From contig BCKK01000008.1 in the NCBI GenBank assembly GCA_001600615.1, positions 974,134 to 1,038,133 of the forward strand: a DNA stretch of 64,000 bases. The letters run 5' to 3'. Position 1 is the first letter of the stretch; every line of letters starts with the position of its first letter. Of the stretch, positions 3,703 through 52,737 are shown in pieces. Both the position numbers and the translations under genes were made by a program. The stretch is from Dioszegia crocea (Eukaryota; Basidiomycota; Tremellomycetes; Tremellales; Bulleribasidiaceae). The notes under the pieces were generated by a model. That model was not told where the DNA came from. It searched no databases and saw only the letters and a program-made list of their open reading frames with translations.

Positions 3703-4375
3703 GGCTGTCAGCCGTGCCGATAGAAGTAGATTGTGGACTCTGCCTTTCCTTCTCATCCCCACTCGGATCCGGGCGCGAAAGGACGCATAGAATAATCACT
3801 CAACCTTCCTTTGGCGTCCTCGACTGAACAATAAACTCTCTTTTCCATACCGGATCCCCTGCTTTGTGAGTCGCTTTTGTTCACTTACAATGATATAGCT
3901 ATGGGCTGATGGTCAGGCGTATGTCGGATTGGACAAAAGCGCAGGGCTCGCAGTCCCCATCGAGAGTCTCATCATAGACTTGCATCACGGGAAATTGCCA
4001 AAATCCCTCATCAGACTCAACTCATCCTCATCCATACACACACCTGCTAGACCCGAGTCTGCTTCTTTCACAATCATCGATCTGCCGTGTTGCTACGCAG
4101 TGCAAAGTTCCACGCGTCAAATCTCGACTCGTGGGTGTTAGGACGACTGTGCAGGACCGGGGAGTTACACAGTATCTCGGACAGGATCTACCGGTATCTA
4201 CACGCCACAATGTCAGTATTCCCCCCATACTCTCAATCCCAAACTCCGGACCGTTCCCATCTCCTACACCTCAGGCATAGCTGACCCTTCCCAGCTCCAG
4301 TCTTGCCCAACCTAAATGACCCATCTCAACGCCCCCAATATCCTCTATATACCCCTCCCGACCCAAACACACACC
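3703..4375. other. Spacer, no supported gene
   Basis: 673 bp between co-directional genes. The open frames are short and contain no recognisable motif. The right end is pyrimidine-rich and runs into the ATG at 4376, consistent with the 5' leader of the next gene. An in-frame upstream ATG at 4316 has a weaker context. Confidence 0.35.
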
Positions 4376-7300
4376 ATGTCCTACACCTACACACCTACGC
4401 CTTCCCACTCGCCATCATCTCTCGAAGCATGGCGGAATAAACCTAAGCGTGTCGAGGGCTGGTCAAAGACACTCCCACCCCGAACCGGAGAACCGAGTTG
4501 GGGAAAGGGCGTAGGTGTCGGATCGGCAGAATGGAGTGGGACTACTGGGAATACAGGGTGGAGTGGTCCCGGTGGTGTTGGACACAGGCCTATACCCGCA
4601 GTTGCGAATGGTGTTGAAGACGAGGGCGGACAGCATGTTGGGGATAAAACAGACGGTGGAACCGAACCTACTACTTTCAAAAATGGCCGTTTGGCCAAGA
4701 ATGAACGTGCGGGTGAAGTCGTCCGTGAACAAAGAAGATTAGGGTCTCAAGGATCTACAACTAGTAAGAGCGCGCCACATCTTTCTTTGGGACAACACTT
4801 CGATCGGAGTCTGGATGTACCGATCATCATCCCCGCTCCGGCCAATAATCGACGACGACCCTCTCCTACCCCCTTTCTCGCTTTACCTACTTCCCATCCT
4901 CACCCCACTTCGATACACCCCTCGCCATCGGCTGGACCCTCCCGCCCCATTCCCGTCCGATCAGCAGGATCCGACATTTCCGCCCAATCTGCTCATTCCG
5001 CCCGATCGGTTCGAGACGCCTTTATCGAATCGGCACTTCATATCCCTATTGACCTCCTTGCTGAAGTTCAAGCTGAGAAGCCTCATCGGTCTGTACCCAC
5101 ACCGGCTAGCGCCGGGGAGCCAGTGAGGAAGTCTAAGTCGAATGTCGGTCAACGGGCGAGTGCGAGGATCGTATCAGGTTTGGGGTTGGCGGTAGCTGGG
5201 GGAGAAGTCAGGAAGGCGAAAAGCGGAGGAGGCGGAGGGGTCAAGGTTGCAAAGGACGTTAAGGTGTCAGATCAAGGAAAGAGGAACAGTAGGGTCCCGC
5301 TTGAGCCTGTCAAAACTTGGCCAAGTGCGAAACCTCGGATATCACCCAACGCCAACCCAATTATCCCCTCTATACCTCAGGATCATAAACTTCCCGCTCG
5401 AACATCATCCACCCAGGTCCGACATCCTCATACGTCTACTCCCGCACATCAAACAATCCTGCCCCACGCACCGTCCAGATTACCATCTCCTATACCCCAC
5501 CCACCTCCCACCTCACCCCCATATCTCCGCCCCACCCCTCCCGTCGCCCAACTCCCACAACTTCTCCGACCCGCACTTTCGCGCCCGGGCGGTTCGTTTG
5601 ATGCTCTCACTCGGACTCTCGGCAGAGGCCGGAGTCGACAGACTAGTTTGACGGGAGTTATGGGACCTGGTCATCAGACTCGGTTTGAGCCAAGTACGTA
5701 TCCGTTACCCATGAGTGGGACGACGACTAGTAGGGATTTAAGTCCTGTACGGCCGTTTGTGGATGAACGGGTAAGTCTGTGTTCCTCCATTTGGATGATT
5801 CTCAATATGTGCTGCATAATTCTGAAGCTCGCTTGGAATCTTTTGCTAATCACTCAGGGCCGATCACTAGGAAGCGCCAACTCCCATAAAGGCAAAATGC
5901 CAATCCGGATCGAATTAGAAGATGCAACTCTTACTCCAGGGTCATCAACAGACCGACAACTCTCATACGATCGAGACACGCACCACACCCACATTCCACA
6001 CACGGCCACCTCACACCCCGAATCATCCAGACGACATCAAGGCGAAGTAACCATGGGTCCAAGTACCCATCTCCGAGTGACTCAGTCCAACATTTCGCCC
6101 GGTACCAGTAATCATAGTCGGAGTCACGCAGGAGAGACAACCGGGGGCGGTGGGAGAGGAACAGACGATCCAGATCGGATATCATTTGAAATTCCTTCTT
6201 CTGGTACGAGGGGACGATTGAGAGTTTCCTTGGCGTGGTTTAAGGATGTCGGATCGCCTAGGAAATGGAGAGAAAGAAGTGGGATGTCGCCTAGGTCTTC
6301 AGGGAGTGAAGTACCGCCTCCTTTACCTTCCAAGGATCCTAGGTGGGCGAGAGGCGGTGGTCGGTCTCCTATTCCACTATCTCCCCAATCTCCGCAATCA
6401 CCTAGAAGAGGTGATCGACATCATCGTGCAGGGTCTAATCACGACCACTCTCCTCCCCGATCTCGACCTCGTTCCCCAATCGACCACAGACCTGACCGTT
6501 CCCGCTCGCGCGAAAGAGAAGGAAGGCGCGATTTCCTCGTCCCGCCCGAAAGAGAGCGTGATAAGGTCCGATTTTCCCCTTTACCACCACACGAGCTACG
6601 ATCACCTACAACTACGGGCTGGCCACCTCCCCCTCCACCTTCTCTCATTCATAATCCTTACCTCCAACCTAATGGTCCCATGCCTTACCTCCCCTCCGCC
6701 ACTTTCCCACAACGCCAAGGTCAACCATATCCATACGTCCAGCCAATACCACAGTGGCCTGGTCCAGGAACCCCATTCAACCCATACGGTCCCGCAATCC
6801 ATCCACATCCTCCTATGACGCAAGTTCCTGGTTCACCAGGAGGTAGCCTCGATTCTCAATCTGGCGGATCTAGATCTCCAAGGGGATATAACCAGCCTCT
6901 TCCTCCTTTTTACCCATCAACTCCACATCTCCCACCTCAACTTGGTCCCTTGGGTCAGCCATACCCCGGCGCAACTGGGTTTGGGTACGGAGGCGCTGGC
7001 GCCAATACACAAATTGGCCAAAATCAAGGCGTAGGAAATCTACCCTGGTCTGGGAGACCTACAATGTGGCAGAGGATGTTTCAGCCTAGGAATGAGGAAA
7101 GTCCTTGGGATACTGAGGGGCCTCGTCGGCCGGATATGAAAGAAGGGTGGATTAGGAATTGGAGGAGTGGGGTTGGGGATAGGCCGGGGGATGGGGGTAG
7201 GGAACGGGGCGGAACGACGGTATTTGGTGGTGGAGATACTCGAGTGGGGTATGGTGGAGGCACAGCGCAAGGAAGGGGATGGTTGGGAATGGGAATGCGA

Positions 7301-38599: not shown

Positions 38600-40927
38600 T
38601 GACATTCTCAGGAGCACTTGTGAGTCGGCGGCTGAGACTGTGTGGAAATTTGTGCCCAGACTGATCAGTAGACCATCACGGATTTGGATGATTTCTTAAC
38701 TCCATCGCAAGCCTGTATCATCCCTGTTCGGAATGGCAAGGCTCAGTCAGATCTGACGGATGGATCTGTATGTAACCTTACCATATGAGAGCTACAGCTA
38801 TAGAGCTTGCTTCGATGTATGGTCAAGCAGCTGACGGCGCAGACCGAAATCCACATTGATGGTGATAATAATTACTACGAGGTCTCGACGTACTCTACAG
38901 CTGTAGCGGGTCCGTCAACGGCTCGAGCTGGGCTAGAAAAGAAGGTATTGGAAAAGGCAGAGATCAATCTGAACGATTGTCTAGCTTGCAGGTGAGCTTA
39001 GAGTCTCGCGGAATTTGGACCAGAAGAGCTGACATGACCAGTGGCTGCATCACATCCACCGAGTCCCTCTTAATCACCCTCCAATCCCACCTTGAAGTAT
39101 TGACATACATCAACTCCATATCAAACCCTGCATCTATCGACGCCGAATCTACACCTGAAACTCGCCGTCCATTTCTATCTATTTCACCCCAGACATTAGC
39201 AAGTCTATCAGCCTATCACTCTGCCCATATCTCCCGACCCCCTCTTCCTTTCGCTTTGCTTCTACGTCGAATCCGACATTTCCTCTCTACACCAGAGAGG
39301 GGCGGATGGGTAGTGGGAGACACGACATTCGCCCGGCACTTATCGCTCAGAGAGAGCGTGGCGGAATTTGAAGAACGACGAGCGTACGCCAAGGGCAAAT
39401 GGGTCGATCGGGATGGCGCATCTGAGAAGGGTTACAAACCGGGACCTTTACCCATACTTGCCAGTGCTTGTCCAGGATGGGTATGTTATGCGGAGAAGGC
39501 ACAAGGAGACTTGTTGCCCCTCATGAGTTCAACGAGGAGTAGTCAGGGTGTGGCGGGCGCGCTTGTTAAGCAGTATTGGGGAGGAAAGGCGGGATTGAAG
39601 TAAGTTTCCTGCTGGACACTAAGTTGTTCCAAGCTGATATTGCAGACCGAACGAAATCTACCATGTCACTTGTATGCCATGCTACGATAAAAAGCTTGAA
39701 GCTTCGCGTTCGGATTTTTACTCTGAAGCGCACGAAACAAGAGACGTCGATTGCGTCTTGACGACTGGCGAGCTCGACCTGCTTCTTCACGATCTGGGGT
39801 TCGATCCTTATCGTCCAACGCCTCTCGACTCTCCTTCATCCCTTCCCTCCCCCTCTCCGGACACACCCCACGTCCCCCCTTTGTCCAACACAAATGGTCA
39901 TCACCCATCATCACTCGGCGCATCACCATGGCCCGACCTCCTCATGCCTCCCGGAACATCATCCGGCTCATACCTCCACACCATCCTCTCCCATCTCTCT
40001 TCCGCCCACCCCCGATCGACCGCACTACACATCCGCAAAATCCGAGATTCCCCCGATAATGAAGAATACATTCTCTACGACCCTACAACGAATGAAGTCT
40101 TATTTAAGGGTGCAAAAGTGTATGGATTCCGAAATCTTCAAAATCTTGTGAGGAGAGTTGGCAAAGAGACGGGATTGGGTAAAGGGAAGGGTGCGGGGAA
40201 ATTGGGGGCGGCAGTTGCTGCTCGTCGGAAGAAGGCAAAAGTTGGGGCTGGAGAAATGATAACTCCGGGAACGGAAGTTGGGACACCGGCCAGTGGGGGT
40301 GGGGAAGATTTGGGAGTGGGTCTGGAACGAATGAGGCTGTTCGAAGAGAAGAAGTTGGATTATGTCGAGGTGATGGCTTGTCCATCGGGGTGTGTGAATG
40401 GTGGTGGGCAGATGAAGCCTGTTGCCCCAGGCGTAGGATCGGGTGGTGTAGAGGGGGTAGGAGGGGTGGAAGGTGTTGATGCGCCTGGGTTAGGGGCAGT
40501 GTCAAATGGGATGGAAGTGGATGAAGAAGGATATCCTAGGCCAATACCAAATGAAGGAACGGACGCTCAGCCTAAATTGGGTAAAACGGCGACGGACGGA
40601 GGAGGAGGAGGGCAAGATGTTGAAGAGGGATGGAAGTGGTCTACGAAAGAATGGGTACAGCGGGTGGAGGAGTTGTATTGGGTTGGAGAGGGGGGTTTGG
40701 TTACTCCGCCGCCTGACTCGCCCGGGGCGGATGGGCGGAGTGGAGAAGAGTCGAATGTCAATGTGGAGAAAGCGGACGTATTGGCGGAAACTATCTGTGA
40801 GGATGTTGAGCGGCAATTTGGGCCGGATGGGAGGTGGGAGTTTCTGCGGACTAGGTTTAGGAAAGTTACGGGTGATGTCTTGGGTGGTGATAGTGGCGGA
40901 GTGACACTTGAGGCTGTTAAGTGGTAG
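38600..40927 (+). CDS. NAR1: Cytosolic Fe-S cluster assembly factor Nar1
   Basis: Five exons: 38600-38620, 38672-38767, 38831-38991, 39042-39599 and 39646-40927 (2,118 nt, 705 aa). It starts [20 protein letters not shown]. Iron-hydrogenase-like landmarks: the N-terminal cluster ligands (SQACIIP, then CLACSGCIT), and the H-cluster-like ligands ([43 protein letters not shown]). The ending RTRFRKV is typical. Nar1 joins the CIA targeting complex with Cia1, delivering Fe-S clusters to cytosolic and nuclear proteins; it has no hydrogenase activity. It is longer than the roughly 490-aa yeast protein because of two low-complexity inserts, one Pro/Ser/His-rich (about 39830-39960) and one Gly-rich (about 40180-40620). 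A 305 bp spacer separates it from the divergent 38294 gene. Confidence 0.93.
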
Positions 40928-42547: not shown

Positions 42548-42904
42548 CTAGGCGATCAAATCAGTAACCTCTCCAAGCGCCCACCCCGTCACCCCAAACT
42601 CCTTACACACCACATCGATCGCCGTATTCAACGCAAGCCCTTCCCTCGTACTGATACACTCTGACGTCCAGTCCGACCCTAGCCTGAGCCAAAGGCGTAA
42701 TGTCTCAGCCGCTCTCCAACTTGCCGTTTCTTCTTTCAGGAACAATTTGAGCAACTGAGCCCTCATACCGTCTCCGAAAGCCGAGGCTGTCTTCTCCAGC
42801 ATGTTGCCGGGAGAGGTGCAGGTGATTCTGAAATCCCAGCCGTTCAGTGTCGAGGAGGTGCTTGGGAAGATGGTAGCTTTGAGAATGACTGTATTGGCTG
42901 ACAT
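42548..42904 (-). CDS. X-A: small protein of a three-member unknown family
   Basis: Single exon, 118 aa, starting MSANTVILKATIFPSTSS; the ORF extends upstream to 43087 with poorer composition. It aligns by eye with X-B (43379-43807) and X-C (45781-46233). Shared features: an N-terminal strand-like TVILKATIF; DFRITC with a conserved Cys; a variable helical middle; a WLRLGS motif (WLRPGS in the others); and VVCKEFGVTGWALGE, matching DCKERGVEDWALEE in X-C. X-A is the most divergent copy and lacks an adjacent RidA partner on its left. No signal peptide or membrane span. Function unknown. Confidence 0.6.
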   Translation of the reverse strand: MSANTVILKATIFPSTSSTLNGWDFRITCTSPGNMLEKTASAFGDGMRAQLLKLFLKEETASWRAAETLRLWLRLGSDWTSECISTREGLALNTAIDVVCKEFGVTGWALGEVTDLIA

Positions 42905-43378
42905 TGTGGATATGAGTGTAGGGTGTTTTAGAGCTGTAAGCAGGGGTCTTGGTATTTTGCAGACAAGAGGGAGATTGTGGAGCCTTGAGCTGATCAGAAG
43001 GCTCCCTCTCTTCAAAGGGAGAATCATGTGCGGCAAAAGATGGCAAGTAATCCTATGCAGCTTCGGTATACAGGCCGCAAAGCTCATCAGAAGTGTAGGC
43101 GTGGAAGGCCAGGTCGTGCCTTCGTGAATTCTCTACTTCGATCGCGCAGCAACGGGGTAAGACACATTGCGTCAGCTGGCAAAGCTCATCACCGAGTAAA
43201 GTTATGATCGATATATCATATTGTTGCGGTTACTCATATGATGTGGGCTCGCTCCGCTACTTATATCTTCCTGATTTGAGGTGCTAGCAGCAAAAGCTCA
43301 AAAGATATTCATAACTATACACGGTTGCTCTCGGGACACAGTCAAACGGGCGCTGAAACCCCGCGGCCGGCTCCCAAC
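42905..43378. promoter_or_regulatory. Spacer upstream of X-A
   Basis: 474 bp with no convincing separate gene. The CACGTG block found upstream of X-B and X-C is not seen here. Confidence 0.35.
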
Positions 43379-43807
43379 CTAAGCCTGTCCAGCATCGCCA
43401 CTGACGCCCGCAGCAACCCCGCCGGTCTTGGTCCCCGCGTCTGTAGGCACTTCAGGGGCTCCCCAAGGCACCCACTTGCGCACTCCGTATTGATCGAGTT
43501 TGCACACCCCATCGATGCCCCTGAGCTCCGAGTCAGACGGTGAGCTTGACACACCCACCGAGCCCGGACGAAGCCAACCTCGCACAATGTCAGCCGCCTC
43601 CCCACTGGATTTGCGCGTACGGTCCAGACGGGTGTTGGCCGTCCAAGACAGATGGCGCTGGAGCGTACCAGTCTCGGCGTCGGACAATGGAGAATTGTGG
43701 CATTTGATCTCGACGCCCCCTCCGCCGTCGCAAGGGGAAACGTCAACCCCGGTGACTTCGAGGATCATGGTGTCTGCGCTGACTGTGGATTGGTTGTAGC
43801 TGGACAT
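43379..43807 (-). CDS. X-B: small protein of the three-member unknown family
   Basis: Single exon, 142 aa, starting MSSYNQSTVSADTMILEVTG; an in-frame ATG at 43879 is less likely. It shares with X-C the blocks VEIKC (VKITC in X-C), a following LS...T-L--HL--AN pattern, AADIVRGWLRPGS (AVDQAKAWLRPGS) and VCKLDQYGVRKW (DCKERGVEDW). The C-terminus is a Gly/Ala/Thr-rich tail, also seen in X-C. Its upstream DNA contains a CACGTG block homologous to that upstream of X-C. It lies 603 bp downstream of RidA1 on the same strand. Confidence 0.65.
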   Translation of the reverse strand: MSSYNQSTVSADTMILEVTGVDVSPCDGGGGVEIKCHNSPLSDAETGTLQRHLSWTANTRLDRTRKSSGEAADIVRGWLRPGSVGVSSSPSDSELRGIDGVCKLDQYGVRKWVPWGAPEVPTDAGTKTGGVAAGVSGDAGQA

Positions 43808-44410
43808 GATTGCGTGAGAGAGTGTGTAGTAGTTGATTGGTAGGCTGATGTGAATGTTGGAGATGAGTCGATTGTGCACTAGGATGTGTGAAGGGGAGGT
43901 AAGAGTAGGGGATTCGCCACTTATGTACTTCCCCCCACCCCCGGCCTCAGGGCGAGCACGATCCTGCTCAGAGAAGCCGAGAGCAGAAGCTTACCCCTCT
44001 CCCTCCTTTGTTGCAGGCTGATCCTTTGAGGGTTTCACATGAACTTCACCTTTGGAGGTACAGCCACGTGCGAACTCGAGCTAGTCCAGCGCGGTAGACT
44101 TCATACGTCCTGATCCCTTGAGAATCGCTTCAGTGAAGGCGAACTTACTGGTGTCTTCTGCAACGCGATACGTATCGACGGGATTTGCTAGAGCCTGGAG
44201 AATCAGATATTACAAGTGGGTCTGTCAAATTGCCGTCAGTGTATGAGCGACCATTTTGAGTGTTGTGAGTTACTCGAACAGCCAACGACCAAACGGCTTA
44301 CAGATCACGAATCGAATTCCCACTTGAGCATACTCCTCCCAAGATCCTAGCCGCGACAATGACTGCATTTCTGTCTGAGCCAAGCTCCGTCCCCTCCTCC
44401 TCCGCCCACC
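43808..44410. promoter_or_regulatory. Upstream region of X-B, duplicated promoter block
   Basis: 603 bp. The block at about 44008-44072 (ATCCTTTGAGGGTTTCACAT, then GGTACAGCCACGTGC) matches the block upstream of X-C at about 46421-46475. A second shared piece is GATTCGCCAC at 43911. No gene is seen. Confidence 0.5.
44065..44070. promoter_or_regulatory. CACGTG box upstream of X-B
   Basis: Palindromic E-box 258 bp before the X-B start. It lies inside a block conserved upstream of X-C, so it is more than a chance hexamer. In fungi bHLH factors such as Cbf1 or Pho4 types bind this sequence; the actual factor is unknown. Confidence 0.5.
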
Positions 44411-45034
44411 CTACTTGCTTTGAGGATCATGTGCGACCACCTCGACCTCAACGCGCATATCATCGTACCCCAACCTAGTGACGCCGATACAAGTCCAGAT
44501 GGGCGAGTGGTTCGGCATCCATTTCCTGAAGTTTCGAACCATCGCTTCGAGGGATTCATCATTGAGGGGGATGTGGTATGAGTTGACTCGGTACACCTAG
44601 AGATATGTAAGCTTGGCCCTTCAGGTCGTCCGTAATAAAATGACAGAAAGAATGTGTTAGAAAGACAAAAAGAAGAATCGCCCTGTGGCCCAAACATACC
44701 TGCTCAAAGCCCTTTCCACCTGCGTCCTTCAATGCCAAATCAACATTCTCAAACGCTTGATCAATCTGCGCATTGATCTCTCTGATGATCTTGCCGGTTT
44801 TAGGATCCCAGCCACCTGAAATACATCAGCAAAGGTCTTAGCAGCATAGCCACCCCGTACCCTGACATCCCCAATGGCTCGGTTAAAGGGAGGATAACTA
44901 GTTACTACAGCCAGTAACTCACCCTGTCCCGAAAGTTCAATCTTGTCTCCCACTCTGACACCCTGGCTATAGTGCTGGCGCTTCACAGCGTCGGTCCCGT
45001 ATCCTTCATAGGCGGAATATTGGAGGTGGCTCAT
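44411..45034 (-). CDS. RidA1: RidA/YjgF/UK114 family protein
   Basis: Three exons: 44923-45034, 44700-44815 and 44411-44596 (414 nt, 137 aa). It starts MSHLQYSAYEGYGTDAVKRQ. Family landmarks: KIELSGQGG followed by WDPKTGK; INAQIDQAFENVDLALKDAG; VYRVNSYHIPL; and WTCIGVTRLGYDDMRVEVEV with a terminal VVAH. RidA proteins are homotrimeric deaminases that hydrolyse reactive enamine/imine intermediates such as 2-aminoacrylate from PLP enzymes. The usual catalytic arginine of RidA lies in the segment aligned with IWTCIGVT, and no Arg is there (Thr-Cys instead), so this may be a non-archetypal subgroup. It is a close paralogue of RidA2 (46741-47294). The 44816-44922 and 44597-44699 introns are unusually long for this window. 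Confidence 0.85.
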
Positions 45035-45780
45035 CTTTTAGTGATCAAGTTGAATTTGAGGTTGGTGGAGTGAAGGTAAATTGTGAGTTCTGTTCCGAAG
45101 ACATCTTCGAGAGATACGAGCGCTTTATAGAATGTAGTTGCTGATCAATCATCTGATGAAAAAGGCCTTACTAATGTCAAGTACGAAAAAACGTTCGTCG
45201 GTCTTATGTATGACGCTCGGAATCTCGGATGGATAGGTGGGCCATATGCGGATCCGGGGGGCATGAGGCGGTATAAGGCGGTATGAGTCAACATTCCTCT
45301 AAATTTAGACTCCGGCCCGCGGCCGGCTCTGAGCTGTCGCTCTGTCTTTGGGCCTCGTATACTCGGGTCTGCCGCTGTCAACGTGCACTGAACGAGCAGC
45401 AATCCAGCACATCTACTCTGTCATTATACTCAATTATTATGCGACACCTATGTCAATCGCATAGTCACTACAGCCATCAGAAACGCGAAACGTCCGGGTC
45501 TCCCCGGGACCCCTGTTTAAACCTTTGTTGTAGCTTCTTCCTTTATATCCTAACGTGGACGGACCTCCCACCGTATCTCTGAAGTCGACGACAAGGGGGG
45601 ATCCATGCTAGGCCTAGCGTCGACACAGTGGACTGATCTATCACTCGTGACTCTTGTGAGATTTCCATCATTTCCTCGCTTCAGCTGTTCTTATGATAGA
45701 CACGGCGGCCAACGATCCAAAGATATTCATCATGAAAACACTCAAAGTTAACACGGTCTGGAGTCTGGACTCTGAAGACA
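45035..45780. other. Spacer between RidA1 and X-C
   Basis: 746 bp. The left part is the RidA1 upstream region. Short frames on both strands (45145-45402, 45283-45582) are shadows without motifs. Confidence 0.35.
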
Positions 45781-46233
45781 CTACCAAATGGCTGCAACCC
45801 CAGCAGCAGCTCCGTGAGCGTCGGCATATGTGCCGTTCCGAGGTTCCCCTTCCGCACTCGCCCCAGCGTCCTCTTCAAGAGCCCAGTCTTCCACTCCTCG
45901 CTCCTTGCAATCCAAGTCAAAGCACCGGGTTTGCCACGCCGAGTTCTCCATGGTGAATGGGCCTGAGTTTGACCCCGGCCGGAGCCAAGCCTTGGCTTGA
46001 TCCACCGCCATGTCACTGGTCCCACCATCTTCTTTCCAAGATGACAGAAAACAGTTCGCTTTGAAGGTCAGATGCTCCCCCAATTTGGTAGAGGCCCTCT
46101 TCGAGAGATGGGAACTCACGCATGTGATCTTGACCTCGGAGATGATCACCGAGCCAAGAACGTCAACATGATTCCTGGCAACCTTGAGGAACGTGGTGCC
46201 TGTGCCGGAGGTGCTTTGGGTGAGCGTCACCAT
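45781..46233 (-). CDS. X-C: small protein of the three-member unknown family
   Basis: Single exon, 150 aa, starting MVTLTQSTSGTGTTFLKVAR. An apparent intron (GTGAGT near 46117) is rejected because the unspliced frame aligns with X-B along this stretch. Conserved: EVKITC; LGEHLTFKAN; AVDQAKAWLRPGS; and DCKERGVEDWALEED. The tail is Gly/Ala-rich. Two conserved cysteines (in KITC and DCKE) could form a disulphide or bind metal; that is inference. No secretion signal. It is co-directional with RidA2, 507 bp downstream of it. Confidence 0.65.
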   Translation of the reverse strand: MVTLTQSTSGTGTTFLKVARNHVDVLGSVIISEVKITCVSSHLSKRASTKLGEHLTFKANCFLSSWKEDGGTSDMAVDQAKAWLRPGSNSGPFTMENSAWQTRCFDLDCKERGVEDWALEEDAGASAEGEPRNGTYADAHGAAAGVAAIW

Positions 46234-46468
46234 CGCGATGCAGCAGTATGGGTGAGGATGTAGGTATTGGGATAAGGAGATAGGTAGTCGACTTTGATGC
46301 GCCTGGTGAGAATGGTGGTGACGATGTTGATATGTCGAAAAGAGAAGCGGTACGCAGAGGATTCGCCACTCTTATAGCCCCCATGTAGGTGCTGGCGAGC
46401 TGAGCACTATTGTGCATCCCTTGTTCCTGCCGGATCCTTTCAGAGTTTCAGATGCCTTGGGGTACACC

Positions 46469-46474
46469 CACGTG
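46469..46474. promoter_or_regulatory. CACGTG box upstream of X-C
   Basis: E-box 236 bp before the X-C start, in the same sequence context (GGTAC, four bases, CACGTGC) as the box upstream of X-B. Confidence 0.5.
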
Positions 46475-46524
46475 CAACAGCAAGTTCAGATGTCAGTAGA
46501 ACGGTTCCTGTTATGACCCTGATG

Positions 46525-46540
46525 ATCGATGATCATCGAT
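46525..46540. repeat. 16-bp perfect palindrome ATCGATGATCATCGAT
   Basis: The sequence equals its own reverse complement over 16 bases. It lies between RidA2 and X-C, 292 bp upstream of the X-C start. It could be an operator-like site for a dimeric factor or a structural element. No second copy was noticed near X-B. Confidence 0.5.
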
Positions 46541-46740
46541 GCGGGTGTCAGCAGTTGCAAGTCAGTGCTCAGCCAGTATCAGCCGTGCAAGAGCCCCACA
46601 ATCAGTACACGAGCATTGAGTGAAGTACCAGCACGTGGGATACGATCCTCTACAGGGAACGAGAGGATTTCTCAGACTGGAATTTGCTGACTTTTCCGTT
46701 CCCCATACCGCCCTACGCTTTCCGGTTCCCACCCTTGAGT

Positions 46741-47294
46741 CTACTTGCTCTCAGGCTCATGAGCCACAACCTCAATCTCCACTTTCATATCCTCCAGTCC
46801 TAGACTTGTAACGCCCACACAAGTCCAAATAGGCTTATGGTCCGGCATCCACTGTTTAAGGTTTCGGATCATGGCTTCGAGCGCTTCATGGTCGAGTGGG
46901 ATATGGTATGAGTTTACTCTGAACACCTGTGCTGATCAGCAGTGATTGCAAGAGGGATAGAATGAGGAGCGGAAGTACATGCCTGAGACCATCCCTTGCC
47001 GCCTGCATCTTTGAGGGCCAGATCGACATTCTTGAATGCTAGGTCGATCTGCGCAGTGACACCAGCGACCACGTCTCCGGATTTGGGATCCCATCCGCCT
47101 ATACCATCAGCTTCAAATCTAACTCTGAGCTTCACGAGGAGCGTCATTGAGTAAAGAATAGCGCGAAACCTACCTTGCCCGGCAATCTCAATCCTCTCGC
47201 CTCCAGCCGGAATTCTCACAGTCTGGTTATAGCCATAACTCTCCAGATTGGTCTTGCCCACTCCTTCGTATGCGTAGTATTTCAGATGGCTCAT
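46741..47294 (-). CDS. RidA2: RidA/YjgF/UK114 family protein
   Basis: Three exons: 47174-47294, 46983-47098 and 46741-46926 (423 nt, 140 aa). Exons 2 and 3 have exactly the same lengths as in RidA1. Landmarks: MSHLKYYAYEGVG; RIEIAGQGGWDPKSG; AQIDLAFKNVDLALKDAG; VFRVNSYHIPLDHEALEAMI; and IWTCVGVTSLG. The two proteins are highly similar from residue 40 on, while the first intron differs in length. The second intron begins with GC (CAG|GCATGT) instead of GT. The usual RidA catalytic Arg position again reads Thr-Cys. It is divergent from IST3/RBMX2, sharing a 273 bp promoter. Confidence 0.85.
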
Positions 47295-47567: not shown

Positions 47568-49079
47568 ATGAAGTAGGTCCTTTCGCCTCGGCTACCTGGC
47601 AGTATCAAGTGCATAAGCTGATACTGAAGCTCGATACAAGAAATTAATCGCATAAACCAGCGCGAGCTGGATCTGGGCCTAACAGGGTCGGCATCGTGGC
47701 ATCATCAATATAGCCAGTCGGCGTATGTGCACGTTGGAGGTTTAAGCTATGAGATGACGGAGGGGGATGTGTTGGCTGTTTTCTCACAGTGAGTTTGGAA
47801 GGATCCGGGTATTCTGGAAGATAGCAGGAAGGATTGGCAAGGGGTTGGAGGGATTATGGCGCGAATTGTGGAATGGGCACCCGATAATTATCCTCAGCTC
47901 CAAGGATCGCCCCTTTGCTTATCGCTGATCATAGGTTTGGCGAAATCATGGATATCAACATGCCTCGAGATCAAGATTCTGGGAAATCCAGAGGGTTCGC
48001 TTTCCTCATGTATGAAGATCAACGCAGTACAGTACTGGCGGTGGATAATATGAATGGGGCGTTGGTTTTGGGTCGGATGTTAAAGGTGAGTCTTAGGCTG
48101 GGTCCCCCGAAACTCCTTTAGGTACTTGGAAGAAAGGCAGCTGACGTAGGCTAGGTCGACCATGTGCATAAATATGAACAACCGGGTAAGAGGGATGAAG
48201 AGGGGAAATATCAAAAACCGGAGGAACCGACGTATAACGCTATGCCTCCAGAATTATCAGGTATGATCCATCTCACTATAATACCGCTTTCACGTCAGAT
48301 CGGCCCCAGCTCGCCGAGCGCGTCTACGTTGAGCTGACAATACAGGCTCTGACGACTCGTCAGGCTCTGAATCTGACGATGACCCCAATTTCGACGCCAA
48401 TGACCCTATGGCTGCCTTCTTGCGCGATGAAAAGCGAAAGCTCAAGTCATCCAAGAAGAGTGGAGGGAAAGAAGAGAAGAGGAGACGGAAAGAGGAACGG
48501 AGGAAGAAGAGGGAAGAGAGGGAGAGACGACGACTTGTTAAGGCGTTGAAGAGTAAAGAGAAGGGGCAGCGTGTGAAGCTGGACAGGGGCGATGAGGGGG
48601 GAGATGGAGGGTCGGGAGGGAGGGTCAGGGATGGAGATGAGAGGGGAGGGGGGAGTGGGAGTCCGAAGAGGGAAAGAGTGAGCCCTGGGCTTGGGGCAGG
48701 TTCGGGAGTATTCAGGTCTGTAAGGGATGGGCGGGATGAACGAGGTGGGGGGCACAGAGCGTTGGGAGGTAGTGGCAGGGATGAGAGAGGGGATGAGAGG
48801 CTGGGGAATGGGTCAGGATGGCCAGAAGGTCGGGATGGGTCAATGTACGACAGGAACGGATCAAATGGGCGGATTGGGAGGGATGGGCGGGATGCTACGA
48901 GGGATAGGGCTTCGGATATGAGTAGAAGACCTCCAAGTGGAGGAGAACGAGAACGCGAACGGGAACGAGAGAGGGAGAGGGAGAAGTCTCCGATACGGAG
49001 TAGTGGGCGTGAACGACTAGAACATGAACGGTTCTATGGAAGGAGAAGTGATGAGTACGAAAGAAGGGATCGTAGATAG
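47568..49079 (+). CDS. IST3: RBMX2/Ist3-type spliceosomal RNA-binding protein
   Basis: Five exons: 47568-47572, 47630-47788, 47935-48085, 48155-48260 and 48346-49079 (1,155 nt, 384 aa). The first coding exon is only ATGAA. The protein starts MNSIQEINRINQRELDLG. One RRM: RNP2 YVHVGGLSYEMTEGDVLAVF, FGEIMDINMPRDQDSGKSRG with RNP1 GFAFLMYED. It is followed by the RBMX2-type VDHVHKYEQPGKRDEEG. In yeast Ist3/Snu17 forms the RES complex with Bud13 and Pml1 on the activated spliceosome. The long C-terminal Arg/Glu/Ser/Gly-rich tail (RERERERERERE and many RDGRD repeats) is typical of the metazoan and basidiomycete form. It converges with mitochondrial uL15, with 50 bp between stops. Confidence 0.9.
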
Positions 49080-49129: not shown

Positions 49130-50204
49130 TCATGCTGAAGCTTCCGAGGCTGGTGTTTCGTTCAGTCCTGGAGCTAGATATCCGAATTTCTTGGGATTGG
49201 AGTAGTATTCTGCAGGTGTCAGCGGCTAGTCGGGTGCATCGAGCGTCCTCCGATTCGTATCTCTGGCTGCTGTCCCCAAATGTCCACCTCCCGACTTCAC
49301 CTCCACCAACTTCATTCCACTATCCTCATGCTCCCTAACTCGATCACTCCGGGGGTCTCTTCTCAGTCCACAATCTCCTATCGATCCCATTCCCTAAGCG
49401 CCTTTCCACTCGCTGTCCCAACCCAAACCCAACCCACACCAGAACTCACGTATATCAGCCTTCCTAACAGGTGCCGCATCTCTCGCTTGAACCTTCTCCG
49501 GCCAGACCTCTTTCCTCAACGCCAGCCTATTCTTATACACAGCCAACACACTCCCTCCTGCCGCCCTCACAGCCTCCGCCGCGCTCTTTGAGAACCTCGA
49601 CAATTCCAGATTGAGCGGTGGGAGCGGTAAGTCCGGATCATGAGGACCTAATAGCTTTACACCTGAAAAGCCTGAGATGCCGTGAATTAGGTTTGAACGG
49701 ACTATATCGCCGATCGTTATAGGTAAAGAAGGGTCGAGTTTGCCTGATAGGATTGAGGATTGGAGTCGAGCGAGAGGGAGGGGAGCGTAGGTTCTTGCGG
49801 TGCTACCGAGTCAGCTCTTATCTCCTAGTATGTTGTGGAATTTGCTAGCTTACAAATTTACAAATCCCCGCTTGGGGACTAAACGATGCATGGGTGTCTG
49901 ACCACCTTCGAACCCTGGTGTAGGTTTCCCATTCCCCGATCTTGCCTTTTGACCCTTATGACCTCTACCTGACGTTCCACCTTTTGTCGATCCTTGACCT
50001 CTACCATATCTTATCGCCTACAACAATCAGCTCAGCGCCTCCACATCGGAGCGTGGACAGACGGACATCTTTCGTGGACCCCTTGATGGGTGCTAAATCG
50101 CCCAAACTGGCTCCGGGGGCTGTATGGACATACCGGGCCGTCGATGGACCGGCTAGTGTCGACAGGCGAGACCAGAGACGAGACGAAGTGGCTGTCAGGG
50201 ACAT
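49130..50204 (-). CDS. MRPL10: Mitochondrial large-subunit ribosomal protein uL15m
   Basis: Four exons: 50067-50204, 49854-50017, 49450-49802 and 49130-49209 (735 nt, 244 aa). The N-terminal 30 residues are Arg/Ser/Thr/Leu-rich and suit a mitochondrial presequence. The diagnostic uL15 segment reads [40 protein letters not shown] and [11 protein letters not shown]. It continues through [13 protein letters not shown], and the last exon gives [15 protein letters not shown]. The last intron (49210-49449, 240 nt) is long for this window. The first donor is GTCCGT, slightly unusual. Confidence 0.92.
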
Positions 50205-50375: not shown

Positions 50376-52737
50376 ATGCTCAGAGGGATAGTCACCACTC
50401 TAGCATCACTCAGAACATACGGTCAGCTCCCCCGAGTATCCCATCAGCCACTTCAACGGCAATTCCAACCTCATAACTTCACCCGTATCGCATCGTTTAC
50501 AATGTCCGCTCCGGCAGAGGGTACACACAAGGATGAAGTGACGGGCGAGATGATTTCCAAGGGGTAAGATTAATCGATATCGAGGGTATGGACTTAGCTG
50601 ATAGGTAGTGAACTCAAGAGACGACAGAAGGAAAGAGCGAAGGAAGCTGCTAAGGCTGAAAAGGCCGCCAAGGCACCTGCGCCTGTTCAGAAGGCTAAGA
50701 AGGATGATGCTGAGCCGGAGGCTGAGCTCGATGCGAATGTAAGTCGGGCGATGTGGATCTTCAGTAGCAAGAGTCTTAGCTGACAAGGTAGGCCTTCTAT
50801 GATTGGCGATACAACCAGATCAAAACTCTTCGTCAGACCAAGAAGCCCGACCCGTACCCTCACAAATTCCACGTTACGCAGAGTGTGCCTTCGTACGTGC
50901 GGGAATGGGGAGCGGAGGGTAAGGTGCCAGAAGGGACGAGTGTCAATGATGCCAAGCCTGTGAGTGAACCGCCCAAAGAGGAGACTAGGAGCTGATGGCA
51001 GATCTCCCTCGCTGGTCGAGTCATGAGCATCCGAGAGTCCAGTGTCAAGCTGAGGTTCTACGACTTGAAGGCAGACGGGCAGAAGGTCCAAATCATGGCC
51101 AATGCAGCGTAAGCTATGTCATCCATTCCGAATTGAACGTCAAGCTGACTCTCTAGCAACTCTGCCTCACCCGATGACTTCCAATCAACTCACACCCTGA
51201 TCCGCCGAGGCGACATCATTGGCGTTACAGGTATTCCCTGCCGAACCAAATTAGGCGAGCTCTCACTATCCATCACGCACATCCAGCTACTTTCGCCATG
51301 TCTACACCAGCTACCCGGTCGAGAAGGTCTAGTCGACCAAGAGACACGATACCGTAAACGATACCTTGATTTGATTATGAATCAATCTACGCGAGATATC
51401 TTCATTACTCGAAGTCGAGTCGTCAACTACATCCGAAAGTTCCTGGATCAACAAGGATTTATCGAGGTCAGCCCTGCTCGCCAAACGAGGGAATTGAGCT
51501 GATTGTCCTAGGTCGAAACACCCATGATGTCCCTTATCGCAGGCGGAGCAACAGCCAAGCCCTTCATCACACACCATAACGATCTGAAGCTCGATCTCTT
51601 CATGCGTATCGCCCCCGAACTCTACCTGAAGGAATTAGTCGTGGGAGGCCTTGACCGTGTATTCGAAATTGGTCGAGTGTTCCGAAATGAACAAATCGAC
51701 ATGACGCATAATCCTGAATTTTCAATTTGTGAATTTTACATGGCCTATGCGGACATGTACGATTTGATGGATCTTACGGAGAGTTTGATTGAGGGGATGG
51801 TATTACACCTTTATGGAAAGACGGCAATTACGTTCCATCCTCAAGGGAAGGGAGAAGGGAAACCATCGTACGAGATTGATTTCAAGGCGCCTTGGAAGAA
51901 GTTTGATATGATTGAGGAATTGGAGAAGAAGACTGGGCAGAAATTCCCACCGGGAGAGACATTGCATGATGAAAATGCCAATAAGTTCTTGAGGGATTTG
52001 TGTAAGACTGTGAGTTTTGCCTCTCTTACTCTGAGAGTACTTCTTCTCGTTCTTCCTACTTCTCTCTCTTTCCTCTTTCCCATTCTCTCCTCCGCCTGCT
52101 TATTTCCTTCACTCGCTCATCTCCACCCCTCCTCGCATTATCCCCGTCTAAGCTGCCGACATACCCTCAGGCCAAAAGTCGACTCTAAATTATGCCCATT
52201 ACTCGCTCCACATGAACTGTGCTAACCCCACAGCACAACGTCGACTGCTCCGAGCCCAAGACCAACGCCCGAATGCTCGACAAGCTCGTCGGCGAATTCA
52301 TCGAAACGCAATGTATAAACCCATCCTTCATCGTCGGTCATCCACAAGTCATGTCCCCCTTGGCGAAATACCACCGATCCCGACCTGGGTTATGCGAACG
52401 ATTCGAGGCATTCGTAGCGACCAAAGAAATCTGTAACGCCTATACGGAATTGAACGACCCCTTTGATCAGAGGGAGCGATTCGAAGAGCAGACCAAGCAG
52501 AAGAATGCGGGTGATGATGAGGCTCAGGGCGTTGATGAGACCTTCATCAATGCGTTGGAGTATGGTCTGCCGCCTACCGGAGGGTGGGGTCTGGGGATTG
52601 ATAGGCTTGTCATGTTCTTGACGGACTCGTCGAATATTAAGGAGGTGCTGCTTTTCCCGGCTATGAGGCCTGAGGGACAGGCGACGCAGGCTGTGGGCGC
52701 GGCGGTTCCGGCGACGGAGGCGGTTAAGGAGGCTTAG
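50376..52737 (+). CDS. KRS1: Lysyl-tRNA synthetase, cytosolic/mitochondrial
   Basis: Seven exons: 50376-50563, 50609-50738, 50792-50959, 51002-51108, 51157-51476 region ending at 51466, 51512-52009 and 52234-52737 (1,905 nt, 634 aa). Domains: Lys/Ala-rich N-terminal extension, OB-fold anticodon-binding domain ([20 protein letters not shown]), then the class II catalytic core. Motif 2 is [20 protein letters not shown] and motif 3 is [16 protein letters not shown]. It charges tRNA-Lys. Two in-frame starts exist. [16 protein letters not shown] at 50376 opens an Arg/Ser-rich, acid-free presequence typical of mitochondrial import. [15 protein letters not shown] at 50502 gives the 592-aa cytosolic form. 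Intron 6 (52010-52233) is 224 nt. Confidence 0.93.
50502..50504 (+). promoter_or_regulatory. KRS1: Alternative (cytosolic) start codon of KRS1
   Basis: The ATG in TTTACAATGTCC begins the conserved cytosolic N-terminus and has a good context, with A at -3. The upstream ATG at 50376 has a weaker one (TTGCATGC). Leaky scanning or alternative transcription starts could therefore make both isoforms. Confidence 0.6.

What the first reader, a model, noticed from the sequence alone, without database searches (positions are those of the whole stretch)
43379..47294. Tandemly duplicated [RidA + X] two-gene module
In transcription order the region reads RidA2, X-C, RidA1, X-B, X-A, all on the minus strand. 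RidA1/RidA2 are paralogues, X-B/X-C are paralogues, and spacing is similar (603 and 507 bp between RidA stop and X start). A whole unit was copied and both halves kept, hinting that RidA and X work together. RidA enzymes neutralise enamine/imine by-products of PLP enzymes; whether X acts in that pathway is inference.
Basis: partly seen in the sequence, partly recalled or inferred. Interest (0 to 1): 0.75.

Follow-up and report, generated by a model that had tools for sequence, protein, structure and literature searches.

The report
Repeated Rid-like and orphan gene pair
A fungal chromosome carries two copies of a neighbouring gene pair, one gene a cousin of the metabolic clean-up enzyme RidA that lacks its key catalytic residue and the other a fast-changing gene with no relatives found, so the copying is real but the suggested detoxification role is not supported.

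Summary
On the minus strand lie Rid (47294-46741), X (46233-45781), Rid (45034-44411), X (43807-43379) and a third X (42904-42548). The Rid copies are 65% identical with matching intron places; the X copies are weak but real paralogues. The two X genes that follow a Rid share a promoter block (62 of 86 alignment columns identical) whose 15-bp core occurs exactly only twice in the 20.57-Mb genome. The copying looks old (Rid dS 1.85, near saturation).

The "RidA" proteins are not RidA-type: the arginine needed for imine deamination (Arg105) is tryptophan in both, and in 120 of 120 listed homologues. This is the Rid4/Rid7 (YjgH-like) signature; the Rid7 protein assayed in print showed no imine hydrolysis. 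Five other Rid genes of this genome keep the arginine. X has no relative found in a 5.8-billion-protein search of limited reach, no Pfam or NCBIfam match and no usable fold match. Its promoter block was not found before either Rid gene, so nothing here supports co-regulation.

Most likely this is an old tandem duplication of two neighbours with later divergence. A working Rid-X partnership is possible but untested, because no other fungal genome could be searched.

The parts
46741..47294 (-).
   Evidence: gene model; PF01042 at 7.3e-19; Trp113 in place of RidA Arg105. A GT-AG alternative for intron 2 gives 143 aa.
45781..46233 (-).
   Evidence: no Pfam or NCBIfam family at E up to 1
44411..45034 (-).
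   Evidence: gene model; PF01042 at 2.7e-21; Trp at the Arg105 place
43379..43807 (-).
   Evidence: protein search empty
42548..42904 (-).
   Evidence: promoter block not found (90 of 200 and 121 of 200 shuffles reach the scores against the two X promoters)
46417..46489 (-). Promoter block of X-C, 73 bp (holds GCACGTGGGTGTACC)
   Evidence: score 50 against shuffle maximum 31 (200 shuffles); core exact only twice in the genome
44004..44089 (-). Promoter block of X-B, 86 bp (holds GCACGTGGCTGTACC)
   Evidence: as above
46359..46369 (-). Second motif shared by the X promoters, GTGGCGAATCC, beside a TATA-like stretch
   Evidence: this 11-mer occurs only here and at 43920-43910 in the window; the stretch's alignment is reached by 25 of 1000 shuffles, so suggestive alone
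43910..43920 (-). Second motif shared by the X promoters, GTGGCGAATCC (X-B)
   Evidence: as above
45705..45730 (-). Short match after the X-C stop (partner after the X-B stop: 43287-43312)
   Evidence: family D5 (81%), 1 of 1000 shuffles reaches the score

Best explanation
An old tandem duplication of two neighbouring genes, Rid and X, in a basidiomycete-type genome; X has one further copy without Rid. Shown: order, paralogy, shared intron places, shared X promoter block, Trp in place of the RidA arginine. Inferred: the Rid copies are trimeric, cleft-bearing proteins of the Trp type (Rid4/Rid7, YjgH-like) that bind or turn over a small metabolite but do not deaminate 2-aminoacrylate; Arg-type Rid genes elsewhere in the genome cover that task. 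Inferred too: X encodes a small soluble acidic protein that changes fast and is switched by its own promoter (a CACGTG-containing block plus a TATA-like stretch). The pairing is kept mainly because the block was duplicated and both Rid copies stayed useful; no step in a shared Rid-X pathway is shown.
For: Rid pair 65% identical; dN 0.24, dS 1.85, so purifying selection and an old split. Trp at the Arg105 place in both and in 120 of 120 listed homologues, aligned with PH0854 'kparvav' and YjgH 'pnwtav'. The other Rid genes found in the genome (two on C1, one each on C7, C9, C11; gene models not built) read PAR at that place by eye. YjgH is the best PDB match by single sequence and second by profile. 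X paralogy above all 2000 shuffles and best in the sense frame. Shared X promoter block, core exact only twice in the genome. No X hit in the 9.5 kb fetched around the C1 Rid tandem pair. X proteins: pI 5.05-5.30, highest 19-residue mean hydropathy 1.35.
Against: No DNA match was found between the sequences just after the Rid stops (717 of 1000 shuffles reach the score) or the Rid promoters (881 of 1000), so the joint copy rests on order and X-side homology. Each Rid is closer to some listed fungal homologue (best 72% and 77%) than to the other (65%), and the tree does not firmly join the two (both on long branches, weak support). They may be older than the array, or have changed fast. One review suggests that YjgH activity may overlap with enamine/imine deamination (PMC5270733, passages read).
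Confidence: 0.6

Rival explanations
1. Functional module: Rid and X act in one pathway or complex, and the unit was copied and kept because they work together.
For: Alternating order and similar spacing; both members of both units stay open and alike as proteins.
Against: The X promoter block was not found before either Rid gene (81 to 173 of 200 shuffles reach the four scores); X-A has no Rid directly before it; X changes much faster than Rid (dN 0.74 against 0.24); no relatives could be checked.
Confidence: 0.2
2. Independent local duplications: Rid and X each duplicated by unequal crossing-over in one neighbourhood, and the alternation is a by-product.
For: A third X without Rid; homologous non-coding DNA found on the X side only; Rid copies no closer to each other than to outside homologues.
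Against: It needs more events to give Rid-X-Rid-X with similar spacing.
Confidence: 0.18
3. The Rid copies are still imine/enamine deaminases despite the tryptophan, so the first reader's chemistry is right.
For: Both belong to PF01042 and match the 'Rid family detoxifying hydrolase' model, below its cut-off (37.2 and 52 of 106.25 bits); the fungal group is strongly conserved; PMC5270733 (passages read) suggests overlapping deaminase roles for YjgH.
Against: Trp in place of Arg105; PMC4433059 reports no hydrolysis of the leucine-derived imine by S. enterica Rid7, and PMC8113886 says that none of Rid4-7 has shown deaminase activity (passages read).
Confidence: 0.08

Closest known systems
Rid7 / YjgH-like Rid proteins (E. 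coli YjgH, PDB 1pf5; S. enterica STM1549)
   Same: PF01042 by sequence; Trp in place of Arg105; YjgH is the best PDB match by single sequence; some database names of the fungal homologues are 'RutC family protein YjgH', and fungal transcriptome papers list 'YjgH family protein' genes
   Different: Fungal, not bacterial; only 26.7 bits to YjgH; the profile search does not separate YjgH (46.1 bits) from an Arg-type protein (46.8)
RidA / UK114 / Mmf1 imine deaminases
   Same: Same superfamily; five Arg-type genes were found in this genome, two of them a tandem pair on C1
   Different: The window pair lacks Arg105; Mmf1 and UK114 chains are weaker matches than YjgH
Fungal 'L-PSP endoribonuclease family' proteins of the SHLQYY...GQGGWDP type
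   Same: 58-71% identity to RidA2 in the listings, similar length, Trp conserved in 120 of 120
   Different: The window has two tandem copies on long branches, each followed by an X gene; whether other fungi have this was not testable

Membership tests
Rid superfamily (PF01042) | Match over the curated cut-off | tested here: met
   68.4 and 76.2 bits against 27.3
RidA imine deaminase subfamily | Arginine at the RidA Arg105 place | tested here: not met
   Trp in both copies and in 120 of 120 listed homologues (alignment to solved Arg-type chains)
RidA imine deaminase subfamily | NCBIfam TIGR00004 curated cut-off | tested here: inconclusive
   37.2 and 52 bits against 106.25, below the cut-off; the models are made for prokaryotes and no fungal Arg-type control was scored
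RidA imine deaminase subfamily | Deaminase activity on 2-aminoacrylate | not testable with these tools
   Needs an assay
Rid7 / YjgH-like (or Rid4) | Tryptophan in place of Arg105 | tested here: met
   criterion from PMC4433059 (passages read)
Rid7 / YjgH-like | Closer to YjgH than to Arg-type Rid proteins | tested here: inconclusive
   YjgH first by single sequence, second by profile, 46.1 against 46.8 bits
Rid7 / YjgH-like | Match to the CDD YjgH_like model | not testable with these tools
   CDD is not held
X as member of a described family | Match in Pfam or NCBIfam | tested here: not met
   No family at E up to 1 for all three X proteins
X as RNase J C-terminal-domain-like fold | Structural match well above unrelated chains | tested here: inconclusive

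The most novel reading that the evidence does not exclude
X is a lineage-specific partner or client of a Trp-type Rid protein, and the array is the first eukaryotic locus that ties a Rid protein of the arginine-less, functionally unknown kind to a dedicated second protein.
Probability: 0.12. Interest if true: 0.6.

Novelty: new member of a known kind. Interest (0 to 1): 0.3.

Why it matters
What Rid proteins without the arginine do is unknown (PMC4433059 of 2015 calls the functions of Rid4-7 completely unknown; passages read), and the three Rid papers read in part describe the non-RidA groups as prokaryotic or largely bacterial. The best 120 of 724 homologues of this protein all carry Trp and are fungal where I recognise the name. 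So 'RidA' as a label for such fungal genes can mislead. This locus gives two natural paralogues and a neighbour that can be deleted and tested.

Tried and rejected
Rejected: that the pair are RidA-type enzymes by residue (Arg105 replaced). Rejected: that X belongs to the Rid family (X-C against RidA2 scores 28, 921 of 2000 shuffles reach it). Rejected: a fourth X found through a WLRPGS-type DNA pattern. Its 10 hits include the two known X genes and lie at control level (12). In the loci scanned (window, L001-L003, L009-L012, L028-L040) the best further profile hit has 12 bits, E 0.024, near C8:1204095, and covers only 17 residues around the motif. The pattern does not cover X-A-like WLRLGS copies, and genome searches with single X proteins found two, one and two of the three copies, so distant X copies could be missed.

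Papers: seven searches. For YjgH with 'fungal' (3 papers), YjgH alone (12) and Rid7, YjgH_like or cd02198 (10), no title or abstract start shown described a function for a fungal Trp-type Rid; some searches returned mostly unrelated papers. Two fungal transcriptome tables list a 'YjgH family protein' gene as changed in expression, without a role (PMC8150946, PMC4791870; one passage each); whether those are of the Trp type was not tested.

Full report
What is there. The minus strand reads Rid, X, Rid, X, X between 47294 and 42548. Spliced, the Rid proteins have 140 and 137 residues and are 65% identical over 137. Introns sit at the same two places in both; intron 2 of RidA2 (46982-46927) is best read as GC-AG, since the GT-AG alternative inserts three residues. 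The X genes are open without introns.

Is it more than chance? X-C and X-B align with score 102, X-C and X-A with 76, X-B and X-A with 61; 0 of 2000 shuffles reach any of these. Among all 36 frame pairs the sense pair is best each time: 102 against 53, 76 against 46, and 61 against 55, the last margin being small. So X reads as a protein family, with weaker coding constraint than Rid. Identities at codon positions 1, 2, 3 are 0.54, 0.50, 0.47 for X-C/X-B, 0.48, 0.50, 0.38 for X-C/X-A and 0.47, 0.50, 0.39 for X-B/X-A, against 0.72, 0.85, 0.50 for Rid; NG86 gives dN 0.74 and dS 1.11 for X-C/X-B against 0.24 and 1.85 for Rid. The X alignment was made on the protein, which favours positions 1 and 2, and dS this high is only rough.

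Non-coding traces of the copy. A block upstream of X-C (46489-46417) and X-B (44089-44004), 62 of 86 columns identical, scores 50 against a mean of 20.5 and a maximum of 31 in 200 shuffles. Its core GCACGTGGNTGTACC occurs exactly twice in the genome, at these two places. A second motif, GTGGCGAATCC, lies nearer the start in both and occurs only twice in the window; the stretch around it is reached by 25 of 1000 shuffles, so it is suggestive alone. A 26-bp match follows both X stops (1 of 1000 shuffles). The block was not found before X-A (90 and 121 of 200 shuffles reach the scores) or before either Rid gene (81 to 173 of 200). Nothing comparable links the Rid promoters or the sequence just after the Rid stops (881 and 717 of 1000). 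As far as tested, the block belongs to X and not to the Rid-X unit.

What the Rid proteins are. Both match PF01042. Of 724 proteins at E up to 1e-20 for RidA2, the best 120 were listed. In 120 of 120 the residue at W113 of RidA2 is Trp, as in RidA1. The solved Arg-type protein PH0854 has Arg there and E. coli YjgH has Trp. Five other Rid genes were found with PF01042 (two in tandem on C1, one each on C7, C9, C11); by eye they read PAR at this place, but I built no gene models for them. In PMC4433059 (passages read) Rid4 and Rid7 are the subfamilies with Trp here, Rid7 is the YjgH-like one, and S. enterica Rid7 did not hydrolyse the leucine-derived imine. PMC5619798 (passages and Introduction read) and PMC8113886 (passages read) tie deaminase activity to the arginine. 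Against this, PMC5270733 (passages read) suggests, from co-evolution and synteny, that YjgH may share in enamine/imine deamination. The call Rid7 rather than Rid4 stays open: a profile of 23 sequences scores YjgH at 46.1 bits and Arg-type PH0854 at 46.8.

Organism. A thioredoxin reductase of the genome, as three joined exon pieces, matches PDB 5w4c at 329.8 bits against 239.6 for the next; from recall 5w4c is the Cryptococcus neoformans enzyme.

History and mechanism. Order, spacing, intron places and X promoter support an old tandem duplication of a Rid-X block, with X-A as an extra copy. Against a simple story, each Rid is closer to some listed homologue (best 72% and 77%) than to its sister (65%), and the tree leaves both on long, weakly supported branches. 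Either the split is old or both changed fast. My best account is that two useful Trp-type Rid copies were kept, that they handle or sense a small metabolite other than the RidA substrate, and that X is an independently switched small protein that rode along; the metabolite, the trimer and the switching are inference. A functional Rid-X link remains possible at about one in five; the decisive comparison with related fungi could not be run.

Noticed in passing
G000:C1:1657153-1658385 (L009 about 4150-5390): A second tandem pair of Rid genes, of the Arg-carrying type; no X hit within the 9.5 kb fetched.
   Followed up: partly
window 47888-48121 and nearby, + strand: An RRM-type stretch resembling a splicing factor such as IST3/RBMX2 (by eye, recalled, no search) that seems to be transcribed away from the upstream Rid gene.
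   Followed up: no
window 49394-49810 -, 51512-52225 +, 39638-40927 +: By eye (recalled, no search) the flanks look like housekeeping genes: a mitochondrial ribosomal L15-like protein, a lysyl-tRNA synthetase and a Nar1-like protein.
   Followed up: no
window 46927-46982: The second intron of the upstream Rid gene is best read with a GC donor.
   Followed up: partly
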